The notes under the pieces are model-generated. The model worked only from the letters and a program-made list of their open reading frames with translations. It was not told where the DNA came from and ran no database searches. DNA of 64,000 nt, from the NCBI GenBank assembly GCA_024401695.1, contig JAKSKN010000004.1, forward strand, positions 124,001 through 188,000, in the 5' to 3' direction. The DNA comes from Bacteroidales bacterium (GTDB lineage Bacteria; Bacteroidota; Bacteroidia; Bacteroidales; UBA932). Made by a program: the position numbers and the translations under genes. Below are positions 5,104-19,073 of this stretch, piece after piece. The number at the start of each line of letters is the position of its first letter. Within the stretch, counting starts at the first letter, position 1.

Positions 5104-5139
5104 TTGACACACAACATATACGGTGTTATCATAAGGCCA
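5104..5139 (+). promoter_or_regulatory. Sigma70-type promoter, leaderless
   Basis: Perfect TTGACA (5104-5109), 17-nt spacer, TATCAT (5127-5132); ATG at 5139, 7 nt after the -10 box. It fixes the start of the split terminase C-part. Confidence 0.8.
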
Positions 5140-7007
5140 TGTTGAAACAGGAGGAAATTGCCGAGGAATATGAGGTGACCGGAATAGAGGTGGCCACTCC
5201 ATCTGGTATGAAGAGGGTGACTAGGGTTTTCAAAACGGTGCCGCTGCGTGTGTGGAGGCTTGAAACAAAGGCAGGTTATGTACTTGAGGCTTCCGCGCAT
5301 CACCTTGTAAGATCAGAAGGAGAATGGGTGAAGATAAAGAACATGGCCGAGGGAGACCTGGTTGACACCGAGATTGGCATGGACACCGTGTCCAAGGTCG
5401 AAGACACCGGGCGTACGGAGGCCCTGTACGATATAAGCGTTGACGACCAGGACCACTCGTTCTACTCGAACGGCATACTGTCGCACAACTCCACCACCAT
5501 CTGTACAAGGATGTTGATGAACTCGCACATGCTGCCCGGCTACCAGGGATTGTACATAGTGCCGAACGCGCAGCAGCTTAAGACCACCGCCGACCGACTG
5601 TGGCAGATGGAGACCAGGTTCGCGGCCAATGTCGGTACACAGAACCTTTACACAAAGAAATACAGTAACGGAAGTATGATATACATGCTGCACTGCGGTG
5701 AGACCGCCAACGACGCCCGTGGTAAGTCTTCATGGGAGATAATTATAGACGAGGCCCAGTCCATGGATCCGACAATTATTCCAGACATCCTAGAGTGTAA
5801 CCAGATGTCTCCGCTTCCTATCACGCTGTACACCGGAACCGCCATGTCTACGGAGACGCTTCTGGAGCAGGAGTGGCAGAAGTCCTCGCAAGGCGTGTGG
5901 CATATCAAGGCTGGAGACGGAAGGACGTGGCTGAATATGCACGACGAGGACACCCTGTTGAAGGTTTGCGACAACCCAAGGGGCCCGACCTGTCCGATTA
6001 CCGGGAAGGTGTTGGACGTCACGGACGGGCATTACGAGCACATGTACCCTGAAAGGCTGGATAGGGGATACATAGGACTGCATGTTCCGCAGGTTATCAT
6101 CAAGGATAACGTGGACAATCCGCTCCAGTGGTCCAAGCTGTACAGGAAGAGGCAGGAATACGACACCAACAAGTTCCTCATGGAGTGTTGCGGTATCGCC
6201 ATGGCAGAGGGTATGCGGGAAATAACCCAGGCCGACTTGGAACGCATGTGCGACATTACGGCCGATACCGACGAACTGCTGCGCAGGTGCAACAGGGGCT
6301 ACTACAGGCTGGTGGTGTCAGGGTGCGACTGGGGCGGATCCGACTACAACCAGGCGGCCAAGACGAAGACGTCGTACACCGTGCATTGCATACTCGGCGT
6401 GGCACCCAACGGAATGGTTGACGTGCTGCATTTCAACAGGTACGCCGGCATGGACTACAAGTCCATAGGCGCTGACATAGTGAAGAACCACTTGAAGTTC
6501 CACGGAAACGTCATAGTGTCCGACTTCGGCGTTGGTAGCGCGTACAACGCGTACATAAGGGAGAACCTGCCTGTGTTCTCACACTTCATAGCGCAGTTTA
6601 CCGCCCCCAATACAGTCCCGCTGGCGCCTATCAAGAACTCCAACCTGACCAACCACGTGGGCATAAACAAGACCGAGGCCATCACCAACGTGTTCTCGGA
6701 TGTAAAGAGGGGCAGGATACACGCCATGAACTGGGGAAAGATGGAACAGTACCTTATGGACTTCCTGAACGTGTACAGGGCTCCAGTGGATACTGAGCAG
6801 GGTATGACCAAGTTCAGGTGGATACGCAACGCCACGAAGGCCGACGACGCCCTTATGGCCTTCACGTTCGCCTATGTATTCGTCAAGATGTACACCGGAG
6901 AGCGTCTGGTGGAGGACAAGGCGTTCGAGAGGTACATAATGGACGTCATGAACGGACATCCTGGCAGGAGCTCCACGCCGCCTAACAACTTTAATTACGT
7001 CATATAG
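5139..7007 (+). CDS. terL: Terminase large subunit, C-part, fused to C-intein
   Basis: Residues 1-117 are the C-terminal part of a split intein: an ASAHH block-B-like histidine near residues 51-55, YDISVDD, and the terminal block NGILSHN followed by Ser118 as the +1 nucleophile. Residues 118-622 are the C-extein of the DNA-packaging motor: IIIDEAQS is Walker B, and a nuclease domain follows with GCDWGGSD, VIVSDFGVG and DDALMAF acidic residues. The P-loop is missing. It is supplied by the gene at 18636, which ends GRQTGK before its intein half, so trans-splicing would give GRQTGK-STT. The mature protein would be about 607 aa, a normal TerL length. The two halves lie about 11.6 kb apart in inverted gene order. 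Splicing itself is inferred. Confidence 0.88.
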   Translation: MLKQEEIAEEYEVTGIEVATPSGMKRVTRVFKTVPLRVWRLETKAGYVLEASAHHLVRSEGEWVKIKNMAEGDLVDTEIGMDTVSKVEDTGRTEALYDISVDDQDHSFYSNGILSHNSTTICTRMLMNSHMLPGYQGLYIVPNAQQLKTTADRLWQMETRFAANVGTQNLYTKKYSNGSMIYMLHCGETANDARGKSSWEIIIDEAQSMDPTIIPDILECNQMSPLPITLYTGTAMSTETLLEQEWQKSSQGVWHIKAGDGRTWLNMHDEDTLLKVCDNPRGPTCPITGKVLDVTDGHYEHMYPERLDRGYIGLHVPQVIIKDNVDNPLQWSKLYRKRQEYDTNKFLMECCGIAMAEGMREITQADLERMCDITADTDELLRRCNRGYYRLVVSGCDWGGSDYNQAAKTKTSYTVHCILGVAPNGMVDVLHFNRYAGMDYKSIGADIVKNHLKFHGNVIVSDFGVGSAYNAYIRENLPVFSHFIAQFTAPNTVPLAPIKNSNLTNHVGINKTEAITNVFSDVKRGRIHAMNWGKMEQYLMDFLNVYRAPVDTEQGMTKFRWIRNATKADDALMAFTFAYVFVKMYTGERLVEDKAFERYIMDVMNGHPGRSSTPPNNFNYVI

Positions 7008-7029
7008 CGAAAAATCTTCTCTCGAGGGA

Positions 7030-7064
7030 TTGACTGCATTCCGTTAAGTGCTATTATTTCCGCA
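7030..7064 (+). promoter_or_regulatory. Sigma70-type promoter, leaderless
   Basis: TTGACT (7030-7035), 16-nt spacer, TATTAT (7052-7057); ATG at 7064, 7 nt after the -10 box. Confidence 0.7.
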
Positions 7065-7384
7065 TGGAGCGAGAAAAAATACAATTGATGCTCACGGACT
7101 GCAAAAAATGCCGTATATTGCCTGTTATAAGGCGTGTTGTAGAGGACGGAGCGGAACGTGTAAGGATAGAATGTCCAAAATGCGGCGCAGCTGTGGTGTC
7201 AAAACTGGGTAGTGTAGGTAGAATTTGGAATTCTATACACAAAGACAAGGAAAAAGAGCCTGTTGCACGAACTGGAGGCGATAAATGGGACGTTACGGAC
7301 TATAGGCCCGACCCGTTGGCACTGTCCGACGACCTTAGCTACAACTCAAGCGCGGCTGACGACGACGTGTTCGAGCAGCTCTAA
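7064..7384 (+). CDS. Small zinc-ribbon protein
   Basis: The 106-aa product has two cysteine pairs, CKKC near residue 13 and CPKC near residue 37, typical of a zinc ribbon, then a charged, probably disordered tail. It may bind nucleic acid or protein; no family was recognised. It is transcribed alone from a leaderless promoter and ends in overlapping stops with the convergent minus-strand gene at 7381. Confidence 0.6.
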   Translation: MEREKIQLMLTDCKKCRILPVIRRVVEDGAERVRIECPKCGAAVVSKLGSVGRIWNSIHKDKEKEPVARTGGDKWDVTDYRPDPLALSDDLSYNSSAADDDVFEQL

Positions 7385-7638
7385 TCCAAAATACGCGCCT
7401 TACAGCTGGTAAACGCGATATTCTTAGGCAAATTGAGGTAAAAGCGGCGGATCAGCGCCGCTTTTGCCGTTTTATCGTCTCCGTTTATTATATTTTTGTA
7501 CGCTTCGCACTCCGGCATCCATACGGTGCCGGTTGTTTTTATGCAATCGCAGGCCGGATCGGTCTTCAAACCGCTGAAACGCACCTTCATTATGCGTCCT
7601 GCGGTCTTCGTCATCCCAAAAAGTAGTTCGTAAAACAT
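7381..7638 (-). CDS. Unknown; possible further RNA polymerase beta' fragment
   Basis: An 85-aa product starting 4 nt after the stop of the beta'-like gene, so in the same operon. It contains KTAGRIMKV, which could match the conserved T-x-GR segment that follows the DFDGD region in bacterial beta'. The rest (CDCIKTTGTVW) does not obviously align. It is either the next piece of a fragmented beta' or an unrelated small protein. A structure-aware alignment would decide. Confidence 0.35.
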   Translation of the reverse strand: MFYELLFGMTKTAGRIMKVRFSGLKTDPACDCIKTTGTVWMPECEAYKNIINGDDKTAKAALIRRFYLNLPKNIAFTSCKARILD

Positions 7639-7642
7639 ATTT

Positions 7643-8782
7643 TTAGCCCTTTCCGTTGATTGTCACGTTGGCGGACAGCGGTACCTTGCCGGATCTTATG
7701 GCGTGAAGGGCGTCCGCTTCGCTGGCAAAGTTGTAAACACGGTTGTCAGGCGACGTCGCTGCCGTGTAGAGGCCCAAAATTTCCTCCTGTTTTGGCAAAT
7801 GCATGACCTGGCCGCTCGACCTGTCCTTGAACGGGTTGCTGGAAGGCAGCAATTTTTCCCTGCATTCCTTCACGGCGGCGTCTGAAGCGGGCACGTGAAC
7901 GTTTATTGTATCACCGTCGAAGTCCGCGCCAAGGCCCACACATGGCGCAGGAGGCACTGCAATGGCCTTTGCATCAATAATTTTAGGAAAAGCGGCGTTA
8001 ATCGAGAACCTGTGCCACTGCGGAGCGCGCGAATACCACACAGGACGCTCCTGCACAACGTCGTTCAAGGCCTTTTCGGCGTACGGAGTCCTGTCTTTAA
8101 CCGCCTTCAGCGCCTCGGCATCCCTCATTCCGAGCTGCTTGAGCCTTCTTTGGATGTATGGAGCGTACATTTTGAACGCCAAATCCTTAGGAAGTCCTAT
8201 ATGATCCATATCCAGCTCAGGATCAACGATGATCGTAGACCTTCCGACGTTGTCCACCGGCTTCGCAATCATCTTATTCGACATCCAGGAGAACTTCGAG
8301 GTCTTTCCGACTATCTTTTTAAGGAATCCCTGGACGTCTTTTGCCTTGGTTTTGGGCTTAACAGCGTCTCCGTAGCCGTATACGCTCTTGACGGCGTCGT
8401 AAAGTGCCAGCCTGCTCTTGCCTGCCAGCTTGTCCCCGAACATGGCACGCTCCTCGTTATGGGCGTCACGCACGTCCATGAGGTCCTTGTAGAGCACATT
8501 GGCGTCTCCCATAAGCAGCGTTTCCCCTTGAACGGCGAACGGACGGAACTTTGGAGGCAGTACAGGCACCGCCTCTATCATAAAATCGGCCGGAGACATG
8601 TTGTTTCTGCGTAAACCGCTAGCTATACGCAGCTTTTGCACGGCTCCAGAGCGCTTGGTACGCTTCCCATCTGCCAATTCACGCTTTCCCTCGGCCTCTA
8701 TCTTGTCTGCATCTAGCTGCTGTAGGGCATACAATATAGCTTCAGGCCCTGTTTCTGGTATATTTTCAACGTTTTCAGGCAT
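7643..8782 (-). CDS. RNA polymerase beta' subunit, catalytic fragment
   Basis: The 379-aa product matches the active-site part of bacterial beta': VLPPKFRPF (residues 74-82), a switch/rudder-like region with NVGRSTIIVDPEL (178-190) and GLPKDLAF, RPVWYSRAPQWHR (246-258), and ADFDGDTINVHVP (286-298), whose three aspartates (DFDGD, 287-291) chelate the catalytic Mg. PSSNPF and LPKQEEILGLY follow, as in the family. The N-terminal zinc/clamp part and the C-terminal bridge-helix/trigger-loop part are absent, so the subunit is split over several genes. Together with the beta genes at 52212 and 53315 it implies a phage multisubunit RNA polymerase. The minus-strand promoter (TTGACT-N17-TATACT) is leaderless, with ATG 7 nt after the -10 box. 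Confidence 0.88.
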   Translation of the reverse strand: MPENVENIPETGPEAILYALQQLDADKIEAEGKRELADGKRTKRSGAVQKLRIASGLRRNNMSPADFMIEAVPVLPPKFRPFAVQGETLLMGDANVLYKDLMDVRDAHNEERAMFGDKLAGKSRLALYDAVKSVYGYGDAVKPKTKAKDVQGFLKKIVGKTSKFSWMSNKMIAKPVDNVGRSTIIVDPELDMDHIGLPKDLAFKMYAPYIQRRLKQLGMRDAEALKAVKDRTPYAEKALNDVVQERPVWYSRAPQWHRFSINAAFPKIIDAKAIAVPPAPCVGLGADFDGDTINVHVPASDAAVKECREKLLPSSNPFKDRSSGQVMHLPKQEEILGLYTAATSPDNRVYNFASEADALHAIRSGKVPLSANVTINGKG

Positions 8783-8818
8783 ATGTGCCAGTATACAGCA
8801 CTATATCTGCGTAGTCAA
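8783..8818 (-). promoter_or_regulatory. Sigma70-type promoter, leaderless (minus strand)
   Basis: Read on the minus strand: TTGACT, 17-nt spacer, TATACT, GGCACAT, then the ATG at 8782. It is divergent from the plus-strand promoter at 8829. Confidence 0.75.
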
Positions 8819-8828
8819 GGTGGGCATT

Positions 8829-8865
8829 GAAAAAACGGCATATTTAGTGTTATACATATGTGCTA
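8829..8865 (+). promoter_or_regulatory. GAAAAA/TATACATAT promoter, leaderless
   Basis: TTGAAAAAACGG, then TATACATATGTGCTATG with the ATG at 8865. Member of the shared promoter class. Confidence 0.7.
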
Positions 8866-9383
8866 TGCGTATTACATCAGCTCAACAGGCCATCGCCGCT
8901 GGCCTGCTCAAAGAAGCGGCTGAGGAAGCGGAACTCACCGAGTTCCGCGAGGACGACCTTGTGTGCTGCAAAGGTGCAGTATACAGGGTCGTTGCGCTGT
9001 CGTGGCCTATTCACCGGGATAGGTACCTCCTGGTGAAGCGGACCAGGGACGACAGATACTGCAGGGGGTTTGCCCCCTCGCAGAAGCTCGTATCAGAGGT
9101 CCGAAAGGCCGTGGCCGACATATCGGCCATCTGCGGACCGACCAGAATCCAGAGGGTATCACGCCGCAGGGTTGGTGGCTACACCAACCCAGACGGAACC
9201 GCGGTTCCAGAGTCCTGGAGCACCTGGTACGAATATAAGTGGGTGACGACTCCGTCTGAGGCCAAGAAGTTCATACTCAATGGCGATTACGCCAAACACG
9301 GCTACAAGCTGTGTGCAGTATGTGTGCTGATTGGTGCAGGACGTCTGCACATCCCCGTGAAAGACGGCGTACCGGCCGTGTAA
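8865..9383 (+). CDS. Unknown protein in single-gene cassette
   Basis: The 172-aa product has an N-terminal helical segment rich in Ala/Glu, a beta-rich middle (DDLVCCKGAVYRVVALSW) and a basic central stretch (RVSRRRVGG). No known family was recognised. The start is fixed by the leaderless promoter. Two hairpins follow, the second a clear terminator. Probably an early accessory gene. Confidence 0.5.
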   Translation: MRITSAQQAIAAGLLKEAAEEAELTEFREDDLVCCKGAVYRVVALSWPIHRDRYLLVKRTRDDRYCRGFAPSQKLVSEVRKAVADISAICGPTRIQRVSRRRVGGYTNPDGTAVPESWSTWYEYKWVTTPSEAKKFILNGDYAKHGYKLCAVCVLIGAGRLHIPVKDGVPAV

Positions 9384-9436
9384 CCATAAAGCTTTCTCGG
9401 AGGCGTGCCGGCCTCCTTGCATAGCAATAGTCACAT

Positions 9437-9496
9437 GCCTAGGACCAGGGGCGGCGGCACACGCCCCTGGTCTGCCTATAGGTGTTTTTTTTATTT
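9437..9496 (+). terminator. Rho-independent terminator
   Basis: GACCAGGGGC pairs with GCCCCTGGTC (9443-9472), extended by CCTA/TAGG outside, followed by eight T. A second GGAGGC/GCCTCC hairpin lies upstream near 9399-9416. Confidence 0.85.
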
Positions 9497-9504
9497 TACG
9501 CACG

Positions 9505-9544
9505 GGTGAAATATATAGGCATATGGTGCTATATATAATTGCTA
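9505..9544 (+). promoter_or_regulatory. GAAATA/TATATATAA promoter, leaderless
   Basis: GGTGAAATATATAG, then GCTATATATAATTGCTATG with the ATG at 9544. The downstream half is identical to the promoter at 3938. Confidence 0.7.
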
Positions 9545-9723
9545 TGTTAGAGATATTAGACGTAACTATGCCGCTTCTGGCGGTAGCATTGTTGATGGTC
9601 CATTCGACCATCTTCGCTTGGCAGACTCTTGGGCAACCGGCGCATGACGCCACTGTCCCTGAGGCATTAAATGTTATGGGACTGTGCGTCGCCCTCGCGT
9701 GGTTCCTGTATTTCTGGGCGTAA
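9544..9723 (+). CDS. Small two-helix membrane protein
   Basis: A 59-aa product with two predicted membrane segments, residues about 8-27 (MPLLAVALLMVHSTIFAW) and 43-58 (ending LAWFLYFWA), joined by a short polar loop. It sits in a single-gene cassette between a leaderless promoter and a TTCG-loop terminator. Size and topology would suit a holin, an inner-membrane exclusion protein or a host-interfering peptide; nothing in the sequence chooses between these. Confidence 0.6.
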   Translation: MLEILDVTMPLLAVALLMVHSTIFAWQTLGQPAHDATVPEALNVMGLCVALAWFLYFWA

Positions 9724-9731
9724 ACGAACCC

Positions 9732-9755
9732 AAGGCGCTTCGGCGCCTTTTTTTA
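9732..9755 (+). terminator. Rho-independent terminator (TTCG loop)
   Basis: Third copy of AAGGCGC-TTCG-GCGCCTT followed by T7. Confidence 0.9.
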
Positions 9756-9758
9756 ATC

Positions 9759-10349
9759 ATGAATAAAGAAGAAACAAATATAGAAAAAGACATAAGGAAA
9801 AAGACGGGCTTGGAGCCTGTCTTGACCCCAAGCCTAGGCCGCAACGCCAGAAACGGTGATGCGGTTATTGTAAAGGCTGACGGTTCTGAATTTATAAGCC
9901 ACGTACTGTCTATATCGGACGCAGGAGACGCAGACGGCGTCGAAAGGGCTATTATCGTCGCAGGTGCAGACGACAAGCCGCTCGAAGTCGACGAATCTTG
10001 CGTATCTTCCGTATATGCCGATATAGTAGGTAAAATAAAGAGAGGAACCGTGCTGCGTATAGGCATGGATCTCGTATGCAGCAGCCACATCAGTCGCGTG
10101 GCCGTATCGTACGAGGTTGGTAGCGGAAAGCCTACCGGCGATATAGCCGACATCCTGTACGCAGAGGCGTCAAAGCTCCTAGGGTATGTATTCCCGGACA
10201 AGCTTCCGGCGTTTACAGGAAGCGTGTCCATACACGTCACTCTACCTGAGTACGGAAACGTACTGGCCTGGAGGAACTGCTGTGTGACGCCAGCTAAAGT
10301 GGTGTCCATAGTGGGCAGCCTGAAAAGGCGCCTGGCCAGCCTGGAGTGA
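9759..10349 (+). CDS. Unknown soluble protein
   Basis: The 196-aa product has a lysine/glutamate-rich N-terminus and mixed alpha/beta character (GDAVIVKADGSEF, RAIIVAGADD). No recognised domain. It begins 4 nt after the T run of the previous terminator with no clear promoter in between, so it may depend on read-through. A strong terminator follows. Confidence 0.5.
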   Translation: MNKEETNIEKDIRKKTGLEPVLTPSLGRNARNGDAVIVKADGSEFISHVLSISDAGDADGVERAIIVAGADDKPLEVDESCVSSVYADIVGKIKRGTVLRIGMDLVCSSHISRVAVSYEVGSGKPTGDIADILYAEASKLLGYVFPDKLPAFTGSVSIHVTLPEYGNVLAWRNCCVTPAKVVSIVGSLKRRLASLE

Positions 10350-10353
10350 ATGC

Positions 10354-10385
10354 AAGCGCCCGTGAACAAACGGGCGCTTTTTTTA
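10354..10385 (+). terminator. Rho-independent terminator
   Basis: AAGCGCCCG pairs with CGGGCGCTT (10354-10379), followed by a seven-T run. Confidence 0.9.
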
Positions 10386-10434
10386 CTACGCACCGAAAGG
10401 TGTAGATTCTACTGAAGTTATTACGTTCCAATAC

Positions 10435-10821
10435 ATGATGAAAAATATAAGCGCAATACTAATAGCAGTAGCAGTCGTCCTGTGCGGCATGTCTTTCGCA
10501 AATGAGACCGGGGCACAGGCAGTAACACGTGTGCCGGCGATGCACAGGCATATCGCTGTTCACAATACCGGTAAGAGGGTTGCCAAGCGCGGCAACGCTG
10601 TACATTCAAAGTTCGCCACCGTACTTCGCAAGCACGGCAAGGCGTTTCACTTTGGAAAGCAGCTCAAGCACCGCAAGGGTATCGTGATCCGCCACCGTGC
10701 GCATCGTCCGCATCGCGCATGTACCGCACAGCGTGTATGCCATAGGCATTTCGCCATGAAGAGGCACTGCCGCCACGGATGGCACAGGCATGCCGGATTC
10801 ATGCACAGGAGGCACAAGTAA
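10435..10821 (+). CDS. Secreted histidine/arginine-rich protein
   Basis: The N-terminus is a clear signal peptide: MMKN, a hydrophobic core (ISAILIAVAVVLCGM), then a likely cleavage site near ANETGAQA. The mature chain of about 100 residues is extremely basic and rich in His and Arg, with repeated H-R-H, RHRAHRPHR and HRRH motifs and four cysteines. It has almost no acidic residue. Such a chain in the periplasm could bind metal, nucleic acid or lipopolysaccharide; no family is recognised. The composition differs from all neighbouring genes. It is followed by its own terminator. Confidence 0.65.
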   Translation: MMKNISAILIAVAVVLCGMSFANETGAQAVTRVPAMHRHIAVHNTGKRVAKRGNAVHSKFATVLRKHGKAFHFGKQLKHRKGIVIRHRAHRPHRACTAQRVCHRHFAMKRHCRHGWHRHAGFMHRRHK

Positions 10822-10838
10822 CAATAGTTGTCACACAG

Positions 10839-10871
10839 GGCCGGGGACGCAGGCGCTTCCCCGGCCTTTTG
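10839..10871 (+). terminator. Rho-independent terminator
   Basis: GGCCGGGGA pairs with TCCCCGGCC, followed by TTTT. Confidence 0.75.
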
Positions 10872-10878
10872 CGTATAG

Positions 10879-10915
10879 TGAAAAAACATACTGTTTTGCG
10901 CTATATATAAATGTA
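10879..10915 (+). promoter_or_regulatory. GAAAAA/TATATATAA promoter of the structured RNA
   Basis: GTGAAAAAACATAC, then GCGCTATATATAAATGTACC. It is the same class as the leaderless gene promoters, but no reading frame follows; a structured non-coding region does. Confidence 0.75.
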
Positions 10916-11390
10916 CCGGACGGTTGTTTGACACTGCAGTCGTCACGGGCGCCTCCTTCGGGCAAGCGTAATTCATACGCACCCTGAGGGGAAGGCCTAC
11001 GATGAGGAGAAATCGTAGGCAGGCGCGCTGCCTAGGCACATACAGCCGAAGCAGCGTAGCCGAGTCCGCTGAACGGTGCTCCTACCGTCTGCAGGGCGAC
11101 ACCGCAACACACGCGGTGCAGCCGAAAGGCAATTGGACACCTGCGGTGGTGTGTTTGCCGCAGGTGTCCAAACAGTCTCGGGAAAGTTGGAAGCGCAAGC
11201 GTCAAGAAACGCTTGGCCCGGGTTCGACCCCCGGCGAGACTATCGCAGAAGGAACCGTACCACTCCTTCTGTAGTTCCAGCTGGAAGGCGGTTCACGCCA
11301 AACCTGTTGTGCTACTGCGGCACTGACACAACAGGTTAGGAAAAGGCCTACTGGATCCGCAGATCCAGTAGGTTCATATTTTTTTTATTT
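10912..11390 (+). ncRNA. Large structured non-coding RNA with embedded tRNA-like element
   Basis: About 460 nt between a promoter and a terminator contain no credible gene but many perfect hairpins: GCGTA/TACGC near 10966-10980, a 9-bp stem (10995-11003 with 11012-11020), CACCGC/GCGGTG near 11100-11118, GCC-GAAA-GGC, a 14-bp stem (11133-11146 with 11158-11171), CAGAAGGA/TCCTTCTG (11246-11271) and an 11-bp stem (11301-11311 with 11327-11337). Positions 11174-11242 form a tRNA-like fold: a 7-bp acceptor (AGTCTCG/CGAGACT) and a perfect T-arm (CCGGG-TTCGACC-CCCGG). The D-arm is degenerate and the anticodon arm is a 7-bp stem with a 6-nt loop. The size and ornate folding recall the large phage-associated RNAs GOLLD and ROOL, but I cannot assign it to either. 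Confidence 0.75.
11174..11242 (+). other. tRNA-like domain inside the structured RNA
   Basis: The acceptor (11174-11180 with 11235-11241) and T-arm (11218-11234) are canonical. The D region keeps TTGG..AGCGC as in normal tRNAs but lacks a proper stem, and the anticodon-position hairpin CAAGCGT-CAAGAA-ACGCTTG has an abnormal loop. It is probably not a decoding tRNA; more likely a processing signal or a tRNA mimic. Confidence 0.6.
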
Positions 11391-11391: not shown

Positions 11392-11399
11392 AGCACAAA

Positions 11400-13368: not shown

Positions 13369-14180
13369 CATTCTACATAATAGCGTTTTCTGTGCTGCTG
13401 ATAACCGGCATTATGCAGATATGCCAGTGGAGGTCGCACAGGAAAGTCAATGCCGCCGGGGGAGACCCCGGCGGCAAGCCTAGGAAATGCAAGGACTGCG
13501 AACACTTCGACTTCCTGGACTACTCTTCGTCAAGGAGGTTTGTGTTCGACGGCAGGCGTATATACCACGAGTACCTTCGTGACGGCTCAAGCCTGGGATA
13601 TGTAGATATATACGAGACTGCGGCCGGCAGGTATGTGGCAGTTATAGACGACAGCGACTACTCCAAGAAAACCATACTTCCTGCGGCAGACAAGGACGAG
13701 TTGTCACGCAAGTTGAACGGCGCGTTCCCTGGAGGAAAGGCTGAATTGGGAAGCCCTGTCTACTATGGCGCTACAATGCAGCGGGAAGGCAGGCATGCAC
13801 TGTTGAGGGACGGCTGGATAATCACCCGTATTGTCGATGTGGACGCTCCTGTACAAAACGAGGACACCACGGACGACGACAGGTGGGATCCAATGACTCC
13901 ACGTATTGGAGACGATGGGTTTGATGAAGGAGTGGAGTCGTTCATCAAGGACATCAACACAGCGCACACCGGCTATTACGGCACCGAAGCGAACTACACC
14001 GGGAGGAAGTCGAATGAGGTATATCGCAAGGCGTATATGCAGCATCTCAAGGAGGCCAGGGAGGTTGTCGACTGTCCCCTGGACAAAATGAGCCCTATCG
14101 ACGCCGAGATAAGCCGGGAGACCGCCCTGAAGGCGTTCGGCGTGGAATCTGATGATGTCCGGGAAACCAGGCGTCCCTAA
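13365..14180 (+). CDS. Membrane-anchored protein of unknown function
   Basis: The 271-aa product begins with one hydrophobic segment (residues about 2-20, FYIIAFSVLLITGIMQI) followed by basic residues, so it is N-terminally anchored with a cytoplasmic body. CKDC (about residues 43-46) may bind metal. The body is acidic and charged. It is coupled to the AAA+ ATPase by a 4-nt overlap, so it may be a membrane partner of that ATPase (inference). Confidence 0.5.
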   Translation: MTFYIIAFSVLLITGIMQICQWRSHRKVNAAGGDPGGKPRKCKDCEHFDFLDYSSSRRFVFDGRRIYHEYLRDGSSLGYVDIYETAAGRYVAVIDDSDYSKKTILPAADKDELSRKLNGAFPGGKAELGSPVYYGATMQREGRHALLRDGWIITRIVDVDAPVQNEDTTDDDRWDPMTPRIGDDGFDEGVESFIKDINTAHTGYYGTEANYTGRKSNEVYRKAYMQHLKEAREVVDCPLDKMSPIDAEISRETALKAFGVESDDVRETRRP

Positions 14181-14218
14181 GGGAAACCGGGTACAGCTTT
14201 CCATATGGGGGACGTAAT

Positions 14219-14274
14219 GGGTATACTAAAGTATACATAGTAGTCGGGTATACTAAAGTATACCCTCCTACTAT
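14219..14274 (+). repeat. Twin palindromes and extended hairpin
   Basis: GTATAC-TAAA-GTATAC occurs twice (14221-14236 and 14248-14263). The second copy is extended to GGGTATAC/GTATACCC and flanked by ATAGTAG (14237-14243) and CTACTAT (14268-14274), giving one long hairpin with a 2x2 internal loop. It lies between the membrane protein gene and the tRNA promoter, so it may be an operator pair or a terminator/attenuator. Confidence 0.7.
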
Positions 14275-14326
14275 GAAGAAAGTGGCAAGCACTTTCAAAG
14301 GTAGGTACTAAATTATGAAAAATGTC

Positions 14327-14362
14327 TTGACAGGCAACGCAACATGGTTTAGTATCTACTCA
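14327..14362 (+). promoter_or_regulatory. Promoter of the tRNA array
   Basis: TTGACA, 17-nt spacer, TAGTAT, about 8 nt before tRNA-Asn. Confidence 0.7.
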
Positions 14363-14364
14363 AT

Positions 14365-14437
14365 TCCCCGGTAGCTCAGTTGGCAGAGCACGCGACTGTT
14401 AATCGCGCTGTCGCTGGTTCGATCCCAGCCCGGGGAG
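14365..14437 (+). tRNA. tRNA-Asn(GTT)
   Basis: Acceptor TCCCCGG/CCGGGGA, anticodon stem CGCGA/TCGCG with loop CTGTTAA, T-arm GCTGG-TTCGATC-CCAGC. CCA is not encoded. Confidence 0.9.
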
Positions 14438-14517
14438 CTTAGAGGGAGTCGCAGGTTCGAGCCCTGCAGTGCACCATATGGTGTACTTGGTGTAGCGGCA
14501 ACACACCTTCGCTTATC
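14438..14517 (+). tRNA. Candidate circularly permuted tRNA
   Basis: The 3' half of a tRNA precedes its 5' half. In order: anticodon-stem 3' strand GAGGG (14442-14446), 4-nt variable loop AGTC, T-arm GCAGG-TTCGAGC-CCTGC (14451-14467), acceptor 3' strand (14468-14475), a 4-nt linker ATAT, acceptor 5' strand (14480-14487), D-arm GTGT-AGCGGCA-ACAC (14490-14504), and anticodon-stem 5' strand CCTTC (14506-14510). The acceptor pairs over 8 bp with one GU. The ends coincide with the mature 3' end of tRNA-Asn and 5' end of tRNA-Pro, so normal tRNA processing would leave a molecule open in the anticodon loop. The anticodon cannot be assigned, and position 33 would not be U. Confidence 0.55.
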
Positions 14518-14591
14518 CTGGATATAGCTCAGCTTGGTAGAGCGCTGCATTTGGGATGCAGATGTCGCAGGTTCAAATCCTGCTATCCAGA
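14518..14591 (+). tRNA. tRNA-Pro(TGG)
   Basis: Acceptor CTGGATA/TATCCAG, anticodon stem CTGCA/TGCAG with loop TTTGGGA, T-arm GCAGG-TTCAAAT-CCTGC. Confidence 0.9.
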
Positions 14592-14594
14592 TGG

Positions 14595-14698
14595 ATGTTC
14601 CGGGGTGGTCGCCCGGATGACCCGGTGGCAAGTCCCGAAAGGGATAGTGGGGGAACATACGGCCACACCGTCCGTACCGGCAGAGTACGTGTGGGTAC
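14595..14698 (+). ncRNA. Structured spacer RNA in the tRNA array
   Basis: There is no tRNA here, but the spacer folds strongly. ATGTTCC (14595) pairs with GGAACAT (14652-14658) enclosing three hairpins, the last TCCC-GAAA-GGGA, a cloverleaf-like outline without a T-loop. A second hairpin, CCACAC/GTGTGG with inner GTAC/GTAC, spans 14663-14694. It may be a degenerate tRNA or an independent small RNA released by tRNA processing. Confidence 0.4.
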
Positions 14699-14730
14699 GC
14701 CTCGACCCAAGAACCAAAACAGAGGCAACT

Positions 14731-14802
14731 GCAACCTTAGTATATCGGTTATTATGCCCGACTGTCCATCGGGCGAGGCGGGTTCGACTCCCGCAGGTTG
14801 CG
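14731..14802 (+). tRNA. tRNA-Asp(GTC)
   Basis: Acceptor GCAACCT/AGGTTGC, anticodon stem CCCGA/TCGGG, loop CTGTCCA, T-arm GCGGG-TTCGACT-CCCGC. Position 37 is C, where a purine is expected, and the D-stem is only 3 bp. Confidence 0.75.
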
Positions 14803-14809
14803 TAACACA

Positions 14810-14882
14810 GGAGGAATAGCTCAGTTGGCAGAGCATCTGGCTGAAGATCAGAGTGTCGGTGGTTCGAGCCCATCTTCCTCCA
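14810..14882 (+). tRNA. tRNA-Phe(GAA)
   Basis: Acceptor GGAGGAA/TTCCTCC, anticodon loop CTGAAGA, T-arm GGTGG-TTCGAGC-CCATC. Confidence 0.88.
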
Positions 14883-14888
14883 CTCAAT

Positions 14889-14980
14889 AAGGAGAATAAG
14901 CTCAGTGGTAGAGCTCGGGTTGTGACCCTGGCCGTTATGGAGGGTCCCGGTGTCGGCGGTTCGATTCCGTCTTCTCCTTC
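14889..14980 (+). tRNA. tRNA-His(GTG) with about 19-nt insertion
   Basis: Acceptor AGGAGAA/TTCTCCT, plus an A-1:T pair and a terminal C as discriminator. D-stem GCTC/GAGC, T-arm GGCGG-TTCGATT-CCGTC. The anticodon loop reads TTGTGAC. Between it and a matching 3' stem CCCGG lies an extra 19 nt (14927-14945) that can fold (ACCCT with AGGGT). Without the insertion the stem TCGGG/CCCGG is perfect except one GU pair. It is either an unusual small intron or an elongated variable region; the tRNA is about 92 nt. Confidence 0.6.
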
Positions 14981-14985
14981 TCCAC

Positions 14986-15058
14986 AAGCAGGTAGCTCAG
15001 TTGGTAGAGCAGCGGTCTCCAAAACCGCATGTCCAAGGTTCGAGTCCTTGCCTGTTTG
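14986..15058 (+). tRNA. tRNA-Trp(CCA)
   Basis: Acceptor AAGCAGG/CCTGTTT, anticodon stem GCGGT/ACCGC with loop CTCCAAA. Confidence 0.9.
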
Positions 15059-15062
15059 CTCC

Positions 15063-15136
15063 GGGGGTGTAGCTCAGCTAGGTAGAGCAGCTGCTTTGCA
15101 AGCAGCCCGTCGCAGGTTCGATTCCTGTCACCTCCA
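15063..15136 (+). tRNA. tRNA-Ala(TGC)
   Basis: Acceptor GGGGGTG/CACCTCC, anticodon stem GCTGC/GCAGC with loop TTTGCAA. Confidence 0.9.
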
Positions 15137-15142
15137 TTCAAA

Positions 15143-15215
15143 GCAAGCGTAGCTCAGTTGGTAGAGCACCATCCTTCCAAGTTGGCCGTCGCCGGTTCGA
15201 GTCCGGTCGCTTGCT
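15143..15215 (+). tRNA. tRNA-Gly(TCC)
   Basis: Acceptor GCAAGCG/CGCTTGC, anticodon loop CTTCCAA. The anticodon stem CCATC/GTTGG carries one T-T mismatch. Confidence 0.85.
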
Positions 15216-15216
15216 C

Positions 15217-15248
15217 TCCGGGGACCAGGTATGGTCCCCGTATTTTTT
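15217..15248 (+). terminator. Rho-independent terminator of the tRNA array
   Basis: GGGGACCA pairs with TGGTCCCC, followed by GTATTTTTT. Confidence 0.85.
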
Positions 15249-15253
15249 ACACT

Positions 15254-15649
15254 ATGAGCACCAATATATACAGACTGGTAGATTCGGACAGGCTTATAGG
15301 CCTGTTGAAGGATATAGACGACTATTGTTCGCGGCACATGTACAAGCGTGTGGTTGGAAAGACCGTGGTGGCCAACCTGCCGTACCTTGACAAGCCACGC
15401 ATAACGATGCATTCGTACACCAGGGATGCAGATGCCGAGTTGGGAGCAATGATGCACGACGCGTACGACGCATGCCTGGAGGCCCGTGCACATGTGCTGA
15501 CCAAGGGAGATGACGGAAAAGACGTTGTTGCCGGAGGCGTGTCGATAGACTGCGTGATAAGGCAACACGGCCGAGACGAGTCTCTTATGGAGGACATACC
15601 CGAGGATTGGCTTAGGCCGGTGGGCGTGCTGCGTAGAGAAAGGTGTTGA
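15254..15649 (+). CDS. Unknown protein
   Basis: A 131-aa soluble product, helical-looking, with a clustered histidine/cysteine segment (CSRHMYKR) early on. No recognised family. The ATG lies 6 nt after the T run of the tRNA terminator, so the transcript source is unclear; read-through from the tRNA array is possible. Confidence 0.5.
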   Translation: MSTNIYRLVDSDRLIGLLKDIDDYCSRHMYKRVVGKTVVANLPYLDKPRITMHSYTRDADAELGAMMHDAYDACLEARAHVLTKGDDGKDVVAGGVSIDCVIRQHGRDESLMEDIPEDWLRPVGVLRRERC

Positions 15650-15685
15650 AGCACCCGGCTGCGTCGTGTATAATTTCTCCCGCTT

Positions 15686-16121
15686 ATGAAGACAGACGCA
15701 GATATATTGAAGGAACACGAGGCTGAACGCACCAAATGCACGGTATACACGCGCGTGATGGGGTAAATAATGCTCCTTTGAAGGGCGACCTTCATAGAAA
15801 ACTCCTCTAATTCATGGGAACTCCATATTGGACAATCATGACCGAAGCCCAGCAGTGGGAACGGGCAACGACTAGCCGAAAGGCGTACACCCAAGCGGGT
15901 GGAAATGGGGAGGGACTCGATAGAGTTCAAGATATAGTCTGATCTGCACGGCAACATGCAGCGGGCGAAAGCCGGGCAAGGAGGTAGCGTACCTTGCTGA
16001 ACATAATGATCACCGTCCTGTAGAGACGTTCAACGCGGGAAAGCAGGGTGAGTTCGAGGAGCGAGAGCACTTCGTCGAACCTAGCCTAAGTTGTCCTTGC
16101 TGCTGTGAAAAACAGCAGTAA
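15686..16121 (+). CDS. Small NrdD-like protein, gene split by a group I intron
   Basis: Exon 1 is 15686-15764 and exon 2 is 16009-16121; splicing joins ..VMG-Y-HRP.. in frame and gives a 63-aa protein. The joined sequence YTRVMGYHRPVETFNAGKQGEF closely resembles the C-terminal segment of anaerobic ribonucleotide reductases, with a GY, then NxGK, then EF/R. It ends in a CPCCC cluster. The catalytic glycyl-radical domain is absent. Small stand-alone NrdD-like proteins exist, but their role is unclear; one linked to nucleotide reduction is an inference. Unspliced, translation would stop one codon into the intron. A TATAAT box lies 12 nt upstream of the ATG. Confidence 0.7.
15765..16008 (+). other. 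Group I intron (in NrdD-like gene)
   Basis: A 244-nt intron with group I core elements: the R-like CAACGACTAGCC, the S-like AAGATATAGTCTGA, an exon ending in T and an intron ending in G. No ORF. From the R element to the 3' end it is nearly identical to the first intron in the DNA polymerase gene (36545-36837), including the same 3' end CTGAACATAATG. That points to recent intron transposition between the two genes. Confidence 0.85.
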
Positions 16122-16142
16122 AAACGGCTATATATAAGTGTG
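16105..16142 (+). promoter_or_regulatory. GAAAAA/TATATATAA promoter of the intron-containing tRNAs
   Basis: TGTGAAAAACAGC, then GGCTATATATAAGTGTGCGG. It overlaps the end of the NrdD-like gene. It drives a structured leader (a GAAA-loop hairpin at 16142-16159 and a 14-bp stem at 16163-16176 with 16199-16212) ahead of tRNA-Ile. Confidence 0.75.
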
Positions 16143-16253
16143 CGGGACGAAAGTCTCGCGCTGGCGTCTGCAGTGTACTTTCGGGTAATTGGGCAACAAC
16201 ACTGCAGATGCCGCAACGGGCCTGTAGCTCAGTGGTTAGAGCCGGGGACTCAT

Positions 16254-16955
16254 TATGAGGTCAAATCGTATAGTAAATGGATATAGAATGGTGTACGTAG
16301 AGGAACTTGATCCTCACAATACACCTAGAAAAAACTATGACGGCTACGTATACGAGCATGTCCTGGTTGCTGAAAAGCTACTAGGAAGGAAGCTGGCAAA
16401 AGACGAGGTTGTGCATCATTTAGACGGTAATAAGGTCAATAACAGACCAGAAAACTTGTTAGTGATGTTGCGCAGCCAACATGTCAGACTCCATGCTTGG
16501 CTTAATAGTGTCACTATAACTGAAAAGGATAGTGAGAATCCGGTGAATTGCAGGAAACCTGACGGAGCTATGTGTATCTATTGTGGAAAGCCATTACCAC
16601 CACATCATAGTAAATATTGTAGTAGGAAATGTACTGATGCGCACAAGTTGACTATTGCAAATCAGGACAAGCCAGTGCAAGACGTGGTAGACAAGCTACG
16701 CGAATTGGGTAGTTTGTCAGCCTGCGGTAAATACTATGGTGTGTCTGCTAATGCTATAAAGCATCGGCTGATTAGGTATAACGTAGATTACAAGGCAATC
16801 TGCAGCCAAGCGCGTGAAGCCGATAAAAGTAGCGCGAAGGTTCAGAGACTAGGAGGTGAGCACGGCAACGATAAGCCTCCACAAGCGCCGGACACCTAAG
16901 TCGAAAGATAAGGTGATAAAATAGTCCAGGGAGTGTGGAAACATACACAAACCTG
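16254..16955 (+). other. Group I intron in tRNA-Ile copy 1
   Basis: 702 nt. The exon ends in T, the intron ends in G, and the core shows GGTTCAGAGACTAG (R) and AAATAGTCCAGGGAG (S). It encodes an HNH protein that starts 1 nt inside the intron and runs through parts of the ribozyme core. It is homologous to the short intron in copy 2. Confidence 0.85.
16255..16899 (+). CDS. Intron-encoded HNH homing endonuclease
   Basis: The 214-aa product has an HNH nuclease core: DGYVYEHVLVAEKLLGRKL, then VVHHLDGNKVNNRPENL (about residues 54-70) with the catalytic His-His and Asn residues and R..H..LH behind. Next comes a CxxC..CxxxC zinc finger (CIYC..YCSRKC) and a helix-turn-helix (SLSACGKYYGVSANAIKHRL) for DNA recognition. 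The last part is encoded by intron core sequence. It would cut intronless tRNA-Ile alleles to spread the intron. Confidence 0.85.
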   Translation: MRSNRIVNGYRMVYVEELDPHNTPRKNYDGYVYEHVLVAEKLLGRKLAKDEVVHHLDGNKVNNRPENLLVMLRSQHVRLHAWLNSVTITEKDSENPVNCRKPDGAMCIYCGKPLPPHHSKYCSRKCTDAHKLTIANQDKPVQDVVDKLRELGSLSACGKYYGVSANAIKHRLIRYNVDYKAICSQAREADKSSAKVQRLGGEHGNDKPPQAPDT

Positions 16956-16992
16956 AATCCCTTGGTCGTAGGTTCAAATCCTACCGGGCCTA

Positions 16993-17205
16993 TTGCATGG
17001 TGGATCGGTACGCCATGCAAGGGGTTGCACTGCGCCCCATATCACAGTGTCGTTGGCGGCTAGCGATATTAGCCGTGCGGAGTACGGCACCGCTGGTTAT
17101 AGCACGCGACGAGTCGACCGCCGTGTGCGTCCTGAATTGTACGCAAGTACAAAAACCCGGGTTTTAGTAATTGCACCCACAGCACGTGCTATAAGCAATT
17201 ACAAC
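16993..17205 (+). ncRNA. Structured spacer between the two tRNA-Ile genes
   Basis: 213 nt with no gene but several hairpins: TTGCATGG/CCATGCAA right at the tRNA end, GGCGG..CCGCC (about 17054-17124) enclosing GGCTA/TAGCC, GTGC/GCAC and other short stems in a tRNA-like outline, TGTAC/GTACA, and TAATTGC/GCAATTA flanking the next tRNA. A decayed tRNA or processing element is likely. Confidence 0.35.
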
Positions 17206-17527
17206 GGGCCTGTAGCTCAGTGGTTAGAGCGTGGGACTCATCTAAGTGATTGATTTATAATCAATTACATTGGTGCCTCAACGGTGAAAGCCGTTGTTGA
17301 ACCCGGTGAATTGCTGGAAACCCGAAAGGGCAATCAGCAGCCAAGCACGCAAATCCAGTAAAAGTAGCGTGAAGGTTCAGAGACTAGAGGGTGAGAATGG
17401 AATCAATAATCCCTCACTAGCGCCGGGCGCCTAAGTCGAAAGATAAGGCGGTGATATAGTCCAGGGAGGTCAGAAATGACCACAAACCTGAATCCCTTGG
17501 TCGTAGGTTCAAATCCTACCGGGCCTA
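17206..17527 (+). tRNA. tRNA-Ile(CAT), copy 2, with group I intron
   Basis: Exons 17206-17241 and 17491-17527. The 3' exon is identical to copy 1 and the 5' exon differs only just before the anticodon stem. Spliced loop CTCATAA. Confidence 0.85.
17242..17490 (+). other. ORF-less group I intron in tRNA-Ile copy 2
   Basis: 249 nt at the same anticodon-loop position as in copy 1. The core (GGTTCAGAGACTAGAGGG, GATATAGTCCAGGGAGG) and the 3' end ACAAACCTG are shared with the copy 1 intron. It is the same intron without the nuclease reading frame. Confidence 0.85.
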
Positions 17528-17530
17528 CAT

Positions 17531-17604
17531 GCATCCGTAGCTCAGATGGATAGAGCACGAGCGTCCTAAGCTTGGTGTCCCGCGTTCGAGTCGCGGCGGG
17601 TGCA
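17531..17604 (+). tRNA. tRNA-Arg(CCT)
   Basis: Acceptor GCATCCG/CGGGTGC, anticodon stem CGAGC/GCTTG with loop GTCCTAA, T-arm CCGCG-TTCGAGT-CGCGG. Confidence 0.88.
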
Positions 17605-17661
17605 CTCCATTGTGGTGTATGTAGTATATGCTGCATGGTTTCTATTGTATGGAAAAGGAGC

Positions 17662-17706
17662 CGTCCGCCCCGCGAGGGGCGGGCGGCGAATTGCCTCGAT
17701 TTTTAG
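17662..17706 (+). terminator. Strong hairpin terminator
   Basis: GCCGTCCGCCCC pairs with GGGGCGGGCGGC over 12 bp with a GCGA loop, followed by a delayed TTTTTA. Confidence 0.7.
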
Positions 17707-17725
17707 CTGGCACATGAAATGAATG

Positions 17726-17755
17726 TCTTGCAATATACAGCATTACATGCTATGG
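17726..17755 (+). promoter_or_regulatory. Sigma70-type promoter of the HU gene
   Basis: TTGCAA, 17-nt spacer, TATGGT, about 20 nt before the HU start codon. Confidence 0.55.
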
Positions 17756-17773
17756 TTTGTCCAGCAACAGAAA

Positions 17774-18073
17774 ATGAATAAGCAGGATATAGTTTCAGAC
17801 CTTTGTTCCGCGGACCCCAATTCAAACAGGGCTGCGAACAAGGATATTGTTGATAAGGTCACAGGCTTGATAATGAGCTATGTCGGCCAGGGACATAGGG
17901 TTACGATAGCCGGTTTCGGCACGTTCGAGTCAAGGATGATGCGCCCGCGCAAGGCTAGAAACCCACGCACGGGCGCATCTGTCGATGTTGACGCGTGTAT
18001 AAAGCCCGTATTCCGCCCGTCGCCTAAATTCAAGAAAATGGTAATAGACGGAAATGTCCAGAAGGAAAAGTAA
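17774..18073 (+). CDS. HU/IHF-family DNA-binding protein
   Basis: The 99-aa product shows the whole family pattern: an N-terminal helical pair (MNKQDIVSDL..), then VTIAGFGTFESR, ARNPRTGASVDV (the beta-arm RNPxTG that inserts into the DNA minor groove) and FRPSPKFKKMV. It bends and compacts DNA as a dimer. Phage HU proteins act in genome organisation, replication or packaging; its place just before a terminase segment fits packaging but does not prove it. I chose the ATG at 17774 because it aligns with family N-termini. Confidence 0.92.
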   Translation: MNKQDIVSDLCSADPNSNRAANKDIVDKVTGLIMSYVGQGHRVTIAGFGTFESRMMRPRKARNPRTGASVDVDACIKPVFRPSPKFKKMVIDGNVQKEK

Positions 18074-18305
18074 CAGTCCAAATGGAGTGCTGTTCTACAA
18101 ACCTAACCAGTTTCCAAGGGCTAGGTTCGGTAATGTAAAGTGGAAACCTTGTAACGAAAATGCCAGCGAAGAAAGCGAAGGAGGAGACGACGGAAGCGGC
18201 GATGGAGTCGACGACCGCACCGAATATCTCCGAAATAGATTTAAGGGCGATTCCGGTGACGGACCTTCTTTGCCTGAGGGACCGGATAGACGAGATCCTT
18301 GCTGA
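18054..18305 (+). CDS. Doubtful small overlapping gene
   Basis: An 83-codon frame starts inside the HU gene end and overlaps the next gene by 146 nt. Only the first 40 residues (basic, RRKSNSPNG..) lie in otherwise empty DNA. The rest is probably a shadow of the downstream gene. It is listed because about 85 nt between the flanking genes would otherwise hold nothing. Confidence 0.25.
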   Translation: MSRRKSNSPNGVLFYKPNQFPRARFGNVKWKPCNENASEESEGGDDGSGDGVDDRTEYLRNRFKGDSGDGPSLPEGPDRRDPC

Positions 18306-18633
18306 GCCAGACACGGCAAGGATGGGAGAGAACGACCTTCTTCTGGAGTACGACGTGAAGATCCGCTCCAGACGCGAGATCAAGTGCCGCAACAACGGGT
18401 CGTCAAGGCTCAACGGCATACTCGGTCCAAGGATGATAGCCATGGCTCCGGGAAGGCTTGAGGCCGAGTTCGAGAGCCAGGTGTTCAGTCCGCTCAACGC
18501 CGACATGTACGATTTGCTGGAAGACCACAACAACACCGGCAACAAGATAAGGCAGGCCAGCAGCATGATGCCTGCGTATATAGAGCACAAGCCCATATTC
18601 GACCCGGCACCACAGGTTATAGAGGGTAACTGA
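18160..18633 (+). CDS. Unknown; candidate small terminase subunit by position
   Basis: The 157-aa product has a charged, alanine/lysine-rich N-terminus, a helical middle (DLRAIPVTDLLCLRDRIDEIL) and a basic patch (KIRSRREIKCRNNGSSR). It lies 2 nt before the terminase N-part, where a small terminase subunit often sits. No helix-turn-helix is convincing, so this is a positional guess only. Confidence 0.4.
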   Translation: MPAKKAKEETTEAAMESTTAPNISEIDLRAIPVTDLLCLRDRIDEILAEPDTARMGENDLLLEYDVKIRSRREIKCRNNGSSRLNGILGPRMIAMAPGRLEAEFESQVFSPLNADMYDLLEDHNNTGNKIRQASSMMPAYIEHKPIFDPAPQVIEGN

Positions 18634-18635
18634 TT

Positions 18636-19073
18636 ATGGACGTATTCTTCGATTTGCAGAACAAGCTTGTAAGCGACCCGGTTTTCATAGCCAAGGTCGG
18701 CAACGTCATGGATGCCATAAACAAGGCCGAGGCTGCCGGCAACAAGCTGGAAACCAGCAAATACATGCTCAAGTTGCTGGACATGTGCGAGTACAACACC
18801 TCGTTGCTTGTGCCGTTCATGTTTCCGAAATATCCTGTGAACAAGCCGATGACGCTGTGGACAAGACCACACGCCATGGCCATGCTGTCTTATCTACCGA
18901 ACGCCACTATAACAGTGTGCACTGGGCGACAGACTGGAAAGTGCACGACAGGGGACACAAAGGTAAACTGCAGGGTAGACGGCGAGGAGCGCGATATGAC
19001 CATTGCAGACATATTCAACATTTCAAAAAACCATGAAATCAAAAAACAAGGAAACAAACAGCATCGACGGTAG
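18636..19073 (+). CDS. terL: Terminase large subunit, N-part, fused to N-intein
   Basis: Residues 1-102 are the adaptor and start of the terminase ATPase, ending TITVCTGRQTGK, that is, the P-loop up to its lysine. Cys103 begins an intein: CTTGDTKVNCRVDG..MTIADIF is block A, with the nucleophilic Cys. The chain stops after 43 intein residues without block B. The missing blocks and the rest of the terminase are encoded at 5139-7007, where the intein ends SHN and the extein resumes STTICTRML. The joined motif GRQTGKST is a proper Walker A. The short N-intein places this with the atypically split TerL inteins such as AceL-TerL, known for an N-piece of about 25 residues. Confidence 0.88.
   Translation: MDVFFDLQNKLVSDPVFIAKVGNVMDAINKAEAAGNKLETSKYMLKLLDMCEYNTSLLVPFMFPKYPVNKPMTLWTRPHAMAMLSYLPNATITVCTGRQTGKCTTGDTKVNCRVDGEERDMTIADIFNISKNHEIKKQGNKQHRR

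What the first reader, a model, noticed from the sequence alone, without database searches (positions are those of the whole stretch)
5139..19073. Terminase made from two distant genes by a split intein that rebuilds the P-loop
The gene at 18636 ends GRQTGK followed by an intein N-piece of 43 residues. The gene at 5139 begins with a 117-residue intein C-piece ending SHN, then STT and the rest of TerL. Joining gives GRQTGKST, the Walker A motif, so packaging ATPase activity depends on trans-splicing. The halves are 11.6 kb apart, in inverted order, and have different promoters, so TerL production needs co-expression of two transcription units. AceL-TerL is a known atypical split intein of this kind, but this order and the 43/117 split may be new.
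Basis: partly seen in the sequence, partly recalled or inferred. Interest (0 to 1): 0.92.

Follow-up and report, generated by a model that had tools for sequence, protein, structure and literature searches.

The report
Phage packaging motor made by protein trans-splicing
This large phage seems to keep the gene for its DNA-packaging motor as two separate genes far apart in its genome, so that a split intein must weld the two proteins together to rebuild the ATP-binding loop; the splicing trick is known, but here and in close relatives the two halves have come apart and been reshuffled.

Summary
An N gene (18636-19073) encodes 102 terminase residues ending GRQTGK plus a 43-aa IntN. A C gene (5139-7007) encodes a 117-aa IntC ending SHN, then STT and 505 terminase residues in all. 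No second copy of this terL was found in the phage contig or its bin. In 17 of 27 relatives inspected the same N and C parts form one gene with no intein at this site. Trans-splicing is therefore by far the best reading, but it rests on sequence alone; no structure could be predicted.

Not new: the kind of intein, its place in TerL, and the split position (Delftia phage PhiW-14 43/121 with adjacent halves; GOS-TerL 37/115). Of 51 TerL loci surveyed, 27 are split with the N half upstream.

New as far as I could see: the arrangement. The window and two relatives form one clade (100/100) in which the halves are unlinked, in three different arrangements. Among loci where I found both halves, only the window has C before N on one strand. 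Far-apart halves also occur in deposited phages vB_VmeM-32 and SCTP-2. Relatives also show an empty site, large and small contiguous inteins, and an adjacent split. Any role in timing of packaging is inference.

The parts
18636..18941 (+). terL N-extein, 102 aa, ending GRQTGK (first part of Walker A)
   Evidence: aligned with uninterrupted family members L131, L136, L149 and with the G102 N half
18942..19073 (+). IntN, 43 aa, Cys1, begins CTTGDTKV, plus stop codon
   Evidence: profile of 13 other IntN: 29.4 bits vs 10.6 for the best shuffled copy; Cys1 invariant in 11 N halves
5139..5489 (+). IntC, 117 aa, ending ILSHN
   Evidence: Pfam PF14890 37.5 bits when given alone, TIGR01443; H55, H116, N117 invariant in 18 rows
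5490..7007 (+). terL C-extein, 505 aa plus stop, starts STT (end of Walker A; Ser+1); Walker B and nuclease motifs named from recall
   Evidence: phrog_675 terminase; conserved columns with L031 and L033
5063..5080 (+). terminator-like hairpin before the C gene
   Evidence: 1 found, shuffles mean 1.9: not significant by count
5104..5132 (+). sigma70-type promoter-like site of the C gene, 11 of 12 matches, ending 6 nt before the ATG
   Evidence: 4 such sites of any quality in the stretch, shuffles mean 2.1
18160..18633 (+). 157-aa gene upstream of the N gene; small terminase subunit is a guess from position only
   Evidence: no family hit; homologue divergent from terL in 11 of 29 loci searched
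14365..17605 (+). 9 tRNA genes with HNH nuclease gene 16255-16899, between the two halves

Best explanation
The large terminase of this 203-kb phage is made as two proteins. The N protein carries the start of the ATPase domain up to GRQTGK, then a short IntN. The C protein carries a long IntC, then ST and the rest of the ATPase and the nuclease domain. IntN and IntC associate and splice by the class 1 route (Cys1, block-B His, His-Asn end, Ser+1). This joins the exteins through the P-loop, giving one 607-aa TerL that can bind ATP. In this clade the split probably came first with adjacent halves, which then became unlinked and were rearranged independently. Shown: sequences, homology, conservation, arrangement in relatives, tree. 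Inferred: association, splicing, need for both products, order of events, timing.
For: The N- and C-exteins are parts of one gene in relatives: 17 of the 27 loci inspected (L131, L132, L135, L136, L138-L144, L146, L148-L150, L153, L156) read RQ-x-x-K|ST without interruption, and L147 (5' cut) and L151 agree. The same site holds a contiguous mini-intein (L133, L134), large inteins (L137, L145, L152; large by length, endonuclease domain not tested) and an adjacent split (L155: N gene ends 4520, C gene starts 4638). Cys1 is invariant in 11 N halves; H55, H116 and N117 in 18 C halves. The contig holds one match each to the N-half and C-half profiles (both profiles include the window). One match only for C-extein, phrog_675 and N-extein in the bin. 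Both halves persist in G102/G103 (C 52%, N 38% identity) and in G128 (C 50%, N 39%). L030 vs L031 C genes differ by 50 synonymous and 6 nonsynonymous changes in the extein, 5 and 3 in IntC. Window, L031 and L159 form a clade at 100/100, with adjacent-split L155 beside it at 83/86.
Against: No experiment; no structure (eleven structure-prediction runs answered 'busy'). IntN alone does not align significantly with the L133 intein pairwise (score 22, shuffled max 32). Profile comparison of the N-extein with N-termini of eight TerLs of other subfamilies finds only the P-loop, 9 columns, probability 9.4%. The contig also has other inteins (two Hint stretches in an RNA polymerase gene), so the pair is not the only intein. 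Single origin of the split is not shown: L155 is unresolved in the first tree, and L033, whose C gene is also split but on a very long branch, fell outside and was left out of the second tree. The window arrangement rests on one assembly.
Confidence: 0.88

Rival explanations
1. The two proteins work as a two-chain terminase held together without splicing, or the intein pieces are decayed relics.
For: No splicing data; IntN is short and divergent; a reductase gene that works as two peptides after a nuclease insertion is mentioned in PMC10448857 (passage seen).
Against: Walker A is cut between Lys and Ser/Thr, so neither chain should bind ATP alone; intein catalytic residues are invariant in the rows aligned; IntC in L030 vs L031 shows pS 0.063 against pN 0.011, though on 8 changes only.
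Confidence: 0.07
2. The separation or reversed order is an assembly error and the halves are really adjacent or joined.
For: Single metagenome assembly; no reads could be examined.
Against: Relatives G102/G103 (18.9 kb apart) and G128 (on two contigs) also have separated halves. The C gene starts with a conserved N-terminus behind a promoter-like site. The contig ends overlap by 55 bp.
Confidence: 0.04
3. On why, not what (compatible with the best explanation): the fracture is neutral; once split, the halves drift to wherever recombination puts them, and no control of packaging is involved.
For: Three members of one clade have three arrangements and different leaders.
Against: The C gene keeps a -10-like box 6 nt before the ATG in the window and in L030-L032; no expression data.
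Confidence: 0.6

Closest known systems
GOS-TerL and AceL-TerL split inteins (PMC11766414, passages seen)
   Same: Atypically split, short IntN (37 and 25 aa), long IntC (115 and 104 aa), in TerL
   Different: Ser1/Cys+1 and Cys1/Cys+1 there, Cys1/Ser+1 here; their sequences were not at hand, so no alignment was made
VidaL intein (PDB 6vgv, 6vgw)
   Same: Best solved relative of IntC, E 1.2e-7 over residues 15-118
   Different: The listing does not say which protein it comes from; host protein and split were not checked here
Delftia phage PhiW-14 gp17 (GQ357915)
   Same: P-loop site, IntN 43 aa (N half not annotated as a gene), IntC 121 aa
   Different: Halves adjacent, N before C, 48 bp apart; T4-like TerL by its annotation
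Agrobacterium phage Atu_ph07 (MF403008)
   Same: Two neighbouring genes both labelled terminase, IntN 42 aa
   Different: Adjacent; Ser1; IntC frame 148 aa
Vibrio phage vB_VmeM-32 (KU160494) and Salicola phage SCTP-2 (MF360958)
   Same: Split TerL with halves far apart (the SCTP-2 N half by profile match only)
   Different: Halves on opposite strands, about 77 kb and 172 kb apart in the records
IMG/VR contigs G102/G103 (3300023022_000001, 3300028481_000003)
   Same: Near relatives; split TerL with halves 18.9 kb apart and 13 tRNA genes between in G102
   Different: N before C on one strand; N divergent from the 157-aa gene

Membership tests
Large terminase (TerL) | C-terminal ATPase and nuclease part matches a TerL family | tested here: met
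   phrog_675, E 1.9e-23, positions 69-545 of 576
Large terminase (TerL) | N-terminal part with Walker A | tested here: met
   N half aligns with N-termini of uninterrupted relatives; Walker A complete only across the two genes
Intein (class 1) | Nucleophile at position 1, block-B His, His-Asn end, nucleophile at +1 | tested here: met
   Cys1, His55, His116, Asn117, Ser+1; block names from recall
Intein (class 1) | Splicing activity | not testable with these tools
   needs co-expression
Atypically split TerL inteins (GOS/AceL-TerL type) | Split near the N-terminus of the intein, IntN about 25-43 aa, in TerL | tested here: met
   43/117; PhiW-14 43/121, Atu_ph07 42/148, VmeM-32 34/118; GOS 37/115 and AceL 25/104
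Atypically split TerL inteins (GOS/AceL-TerL type) | Sequence relationship to GOS-TerL and AceL-TerL themselves | not tested
Fractured gene with homing endonuclease between the halves (Dassa 2009; recalled, paper not held) | Endonuclease gene between N and C halves | tested here: inconclusive
   HNH gene 16255 lies in the interval, but among 11.6 kb of other genes; in G102 only a sub-threshold HNH match

The most novel reading that the evidence does not exclude
Trans-splicing has freed terL from gene order, so the two halves evolve as independent genes. In this phage they sit in different transcription units (C gene on a host-type leaderless promoter, N gene in a unit with no such promoter, perhaps read by the phage's own RNA polymerase), so TerL forms only when both programmes run: an AND gate that licenses packaging.
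Probability: 0.15. Interest if true: 0.8.

Novelty: new variant of a known kind. Interest (0 to 1): 0.55.

Why it matters
One TerL family holds many stages side by side: empty site, large inteins, mini-intein, adjacent split, unlinked halves in three arrangements. That makes the origin and fate of fractured essential genes directly testable. The pair is also a candidate natural Cys1/Ser+1 split intein with a 40-43 aa IntN and several orthologues for protein ligation work. And it warns that gene-by-gene annotation can miss N halves such as the one in PhiW-14.

Tried and rejected
Scans for close relatives by single proteins confirmed none; alignments did. Of 101 genomes searched around the host bin, only the window's own has a C half. 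The claim that the 43/117 split is new was rejected. One inversion cannot explain the difference between the window and G102: both halves are on the other strand relative to flanking genes, while C stays on the w1542 side and N stays by the 157-aa gene. Homology of the N-extein to other TerL subfamilies could not be shown beyond the P-loop. In one search the L155 IntN row is void (I gave a start one base off); L155 is described instead. The pattern of leaderless promoters that peaks in C33 does not peak in G102 (1 at 6 nt, 2 at 7 nt). Paper searches on split TerL; none of the passages I read describes unlinked terL halves, but Dassa et al. 2009 is not held, so I do not claim the arrangement is absent from print.

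Rows left out of trees: of the 31 loci, the first tree used 20, plus the window and L031, 22 rows in all; near-copies and L130, L135, L140, L142, L147, L151 were not put in. The second (20 rows) added L159 and dropped L033, L139 and L153.
Full report
What is there. The window is C33:124001-188000 of a 71-contig bin of 2.65 Mb. C33 is 203,138 bp, and its ends overlap by 55 bp, so it is probably a complete phage genome of about 203.1 kb that maps as a circle. The N gene (18636-19073) encodes 102 residues ending GRQTGK and then 43 residues beginning CTTGDTKV. The C gene (5139-7007) encodes 117 residues ending ILSHN and then STTICTR and the rest of a terminase. From C stop to N start are 11,628 bp; both genes are on the + strand, C first.

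Is it a terminase? The C-extein matches phrog_675 from position 69 of 576, as expected of a TerL that lacks its start. A search with the C-exteins of the window, L031 and L033 gave 31 loci; I read 27 of them around the site. In 17 (L131, L132, L135, L136, L138-L144, L146, L148-L150, L153, L156; some are near-copies) the two parts lie in one frame with RQ-x-x-K directly followed by ST; L147, cut at its 5' end, and L151 agree. The other eight are two contiguous mini-inteins (L133, L134), three large inteins (L137, L145, L152), two split C genes (L129, a near-copy of L031, and L155) and one fragment (L130). The N part of these relatives is homologous to the window's N gene. Against other TerL subfamilies only the P-loop is recognisable.

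Is it an intein? IntC alone passes the Pfam cut-off, within the whole protein it does not; TIGR01443 is passed, and the VidaL intein is the best solved relative. Cys1 is invariant in 11 N halves; H55, H116 and N117 over 18 C halves; +1 is Ser. IntN scores 29.4 bits against 13 other IntN, best of the shuffled copies 10.6, though a single pairwise comparison with the L133 intein was not significant. IntC maps to residues 62-166 of the contiguous 166-aa intein of L133.

Is there another copy? One match only in the bin for the C-extein, for phrog_675 and for the N-extein. Other terminase families were not searched. A weak intein match on contig C8 of the bin and two Hint stretches in an RNA polymerase gene of C33 are further inteins or likely ones, not parts of this pair.

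How common is the split? A crude filter at 95% identity leaves 57 loci; 51 pass my TerL criterion. Of these, 27 have an N-half-like frame upstream on the same strand at a stop-to-stop gap of -3 to 5444 bp (7 at 27-139, 18 at 834-1479, one at -3, one at 5444); 10 are contiguous; 14 show no N half in the fetched stretch, 11 of them with under 1.2 kb of DNA upstream. Searches of whole records then found the N half 18.9 kb upstream in G102 (G103 is identical over the C gene and the N locus), about 14.3 kb upstream in G105 and about 14.9 kb upstream in G106. Among deposited phages that I looked at, PhiW-14 and Atu_ph07 have adjacent halves, VmeM-32 and SCTP-2 have halves far apart on opposite strands. 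C before N on one strand was seen only in the window.

How did it come about? In 11 of 29 loci searched (L133, L134, L136-L140, L149-L151, L155) a homologue of the 157-aa gene lies divergently beside terL. L155 has an adjacent split in that position. G102 keeps N divergent from the 157-aa gene; C lies 18.9 kb downstream on the same strand, and between them are 13 tRNA genes and predicted genes that are all on the other strand. In G128, a MAG labelled Oscillospiraceae, C lies on a 136-kb contig and N on another of 42.6 kb, both with several genes like those of C33; N is again divergent from the 157-aa gene, 1.7 kb away. In the window N follows the 157-aa gene on the same strand, so here the window is the odd one. 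For C, the window and G128 agree (same strand as the w1542 gene) and G102 is the odd one. A tRNA island lies between the halves in the window and in G102, but none was found in the G128 stretches. Window, L031 and L159 form a clade at 100/100, L155 beside it at 83/86; in the first tree L155 was unresolved and the long-branched split L033 fell outside. L137 carries a large intein while its near relatives L136 and L138 do not, and likewise L145 and L146, as expected of a mobile element; the L137 intein begins with Ala, not Cys, so it may be another lineage. One split, one unlinking and later separate rearrangements in this clade is the simplest reading; it is inference.

Expression. In front of the C gene are a terminator-like hairpin and an 11-of-12 extended promoter-like site that ends 6 nt before ATG; by number alone such sites are not clearly more frequent than in shuffled sequence. 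In C33 the pattern TTGAC-N17-20-TANNNT followed by ATG peaks at 6 nt (8 cases, 0-3 at each other distance from 0 to 30), so leaderless transcripts are likely; G102 shows no such peak in the same call, though its C gene has TATAAT-N6-ATG, as have L030 and L032. G128 does not. No promoter-like site was found from 17300 to 19300. Separate control is plausible, not shown.

Literature, from passages only. AceL-TerL is 25/104, GOS-TerL 37/115 with Ser1/Cys+1 (PMC11766414). TerL inteins are described in TaPaz (PMC8228797), Mic1 (PMC7156551) and PaBG relatives (PMC7412058), an intein plus intron in Campylobacter phage IBB_35 (PMC3322345), a split PolB intein in MIJ3 (PMC6892783). Mic1's authors suggest control of packaging by TerL inteins. 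Dassa 2009 on fractured genes is known to me by recall and as a cited reference only.

Verdict. A well-supported case of a terminase made by trans-splicing. The split intein is of a known kind; the unlinked and reshuffled arrangement is a variant that I did not find described in the passages I could read.

Noticed in passing
window 7643-8782 (-) and C33:72208-75603 (+): RNA polymerase beta' is in two genes on opposite strands about 56 kb apart; the second also carries a LAGLIDADG-type intein and a further Hint stretch. Split beta' is described for other jumbo phages (PMC7824862, passages).
   Followed up: partly
window 1542, 5139, 7064 and other C33 genes: Leaderless-type promoters: the -10 box lies 6 nt before ATG in 8 cases in C33.
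   Followed up: partly
L118:6237-7778 (G102 106237-107781): A sigma-70 factor gene with regions 1.2 to 4 next to thyX, between the terL halves of G102.
   Followed up: no
G105:C1:222204-222867 (-): N half of a split TerL interrupted between RQMG and the IntN by an intron-like insert of about 300 bp.
   Followed up: no
L029:1102-3216 (Vibrio phage vB_VmeM-32): TerL C gene with a second, contiguous intein at Walker B besides the split one; L155 and L151 also seem to have one there.
   Followed up: no
C33:22653-25223: One 856-aa protein matching nicotinamide phosphoribosyltransferase and then NAD synthetase.
   Followed up: no
window 18054-18305 and 18160-18633: A small frame overlaps the start of the 157-aa gene and is similar in G102; overlapping genes or a frameshift.
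   Followed up: no
window 19062-19093: A 12-bp hairpin spans the 3' end of the N gene.
   Followed up: no
L137:3648-6575: A large intein at the same TerL site that begins with Ala instead of Cys or Ser.
   Followed up: no
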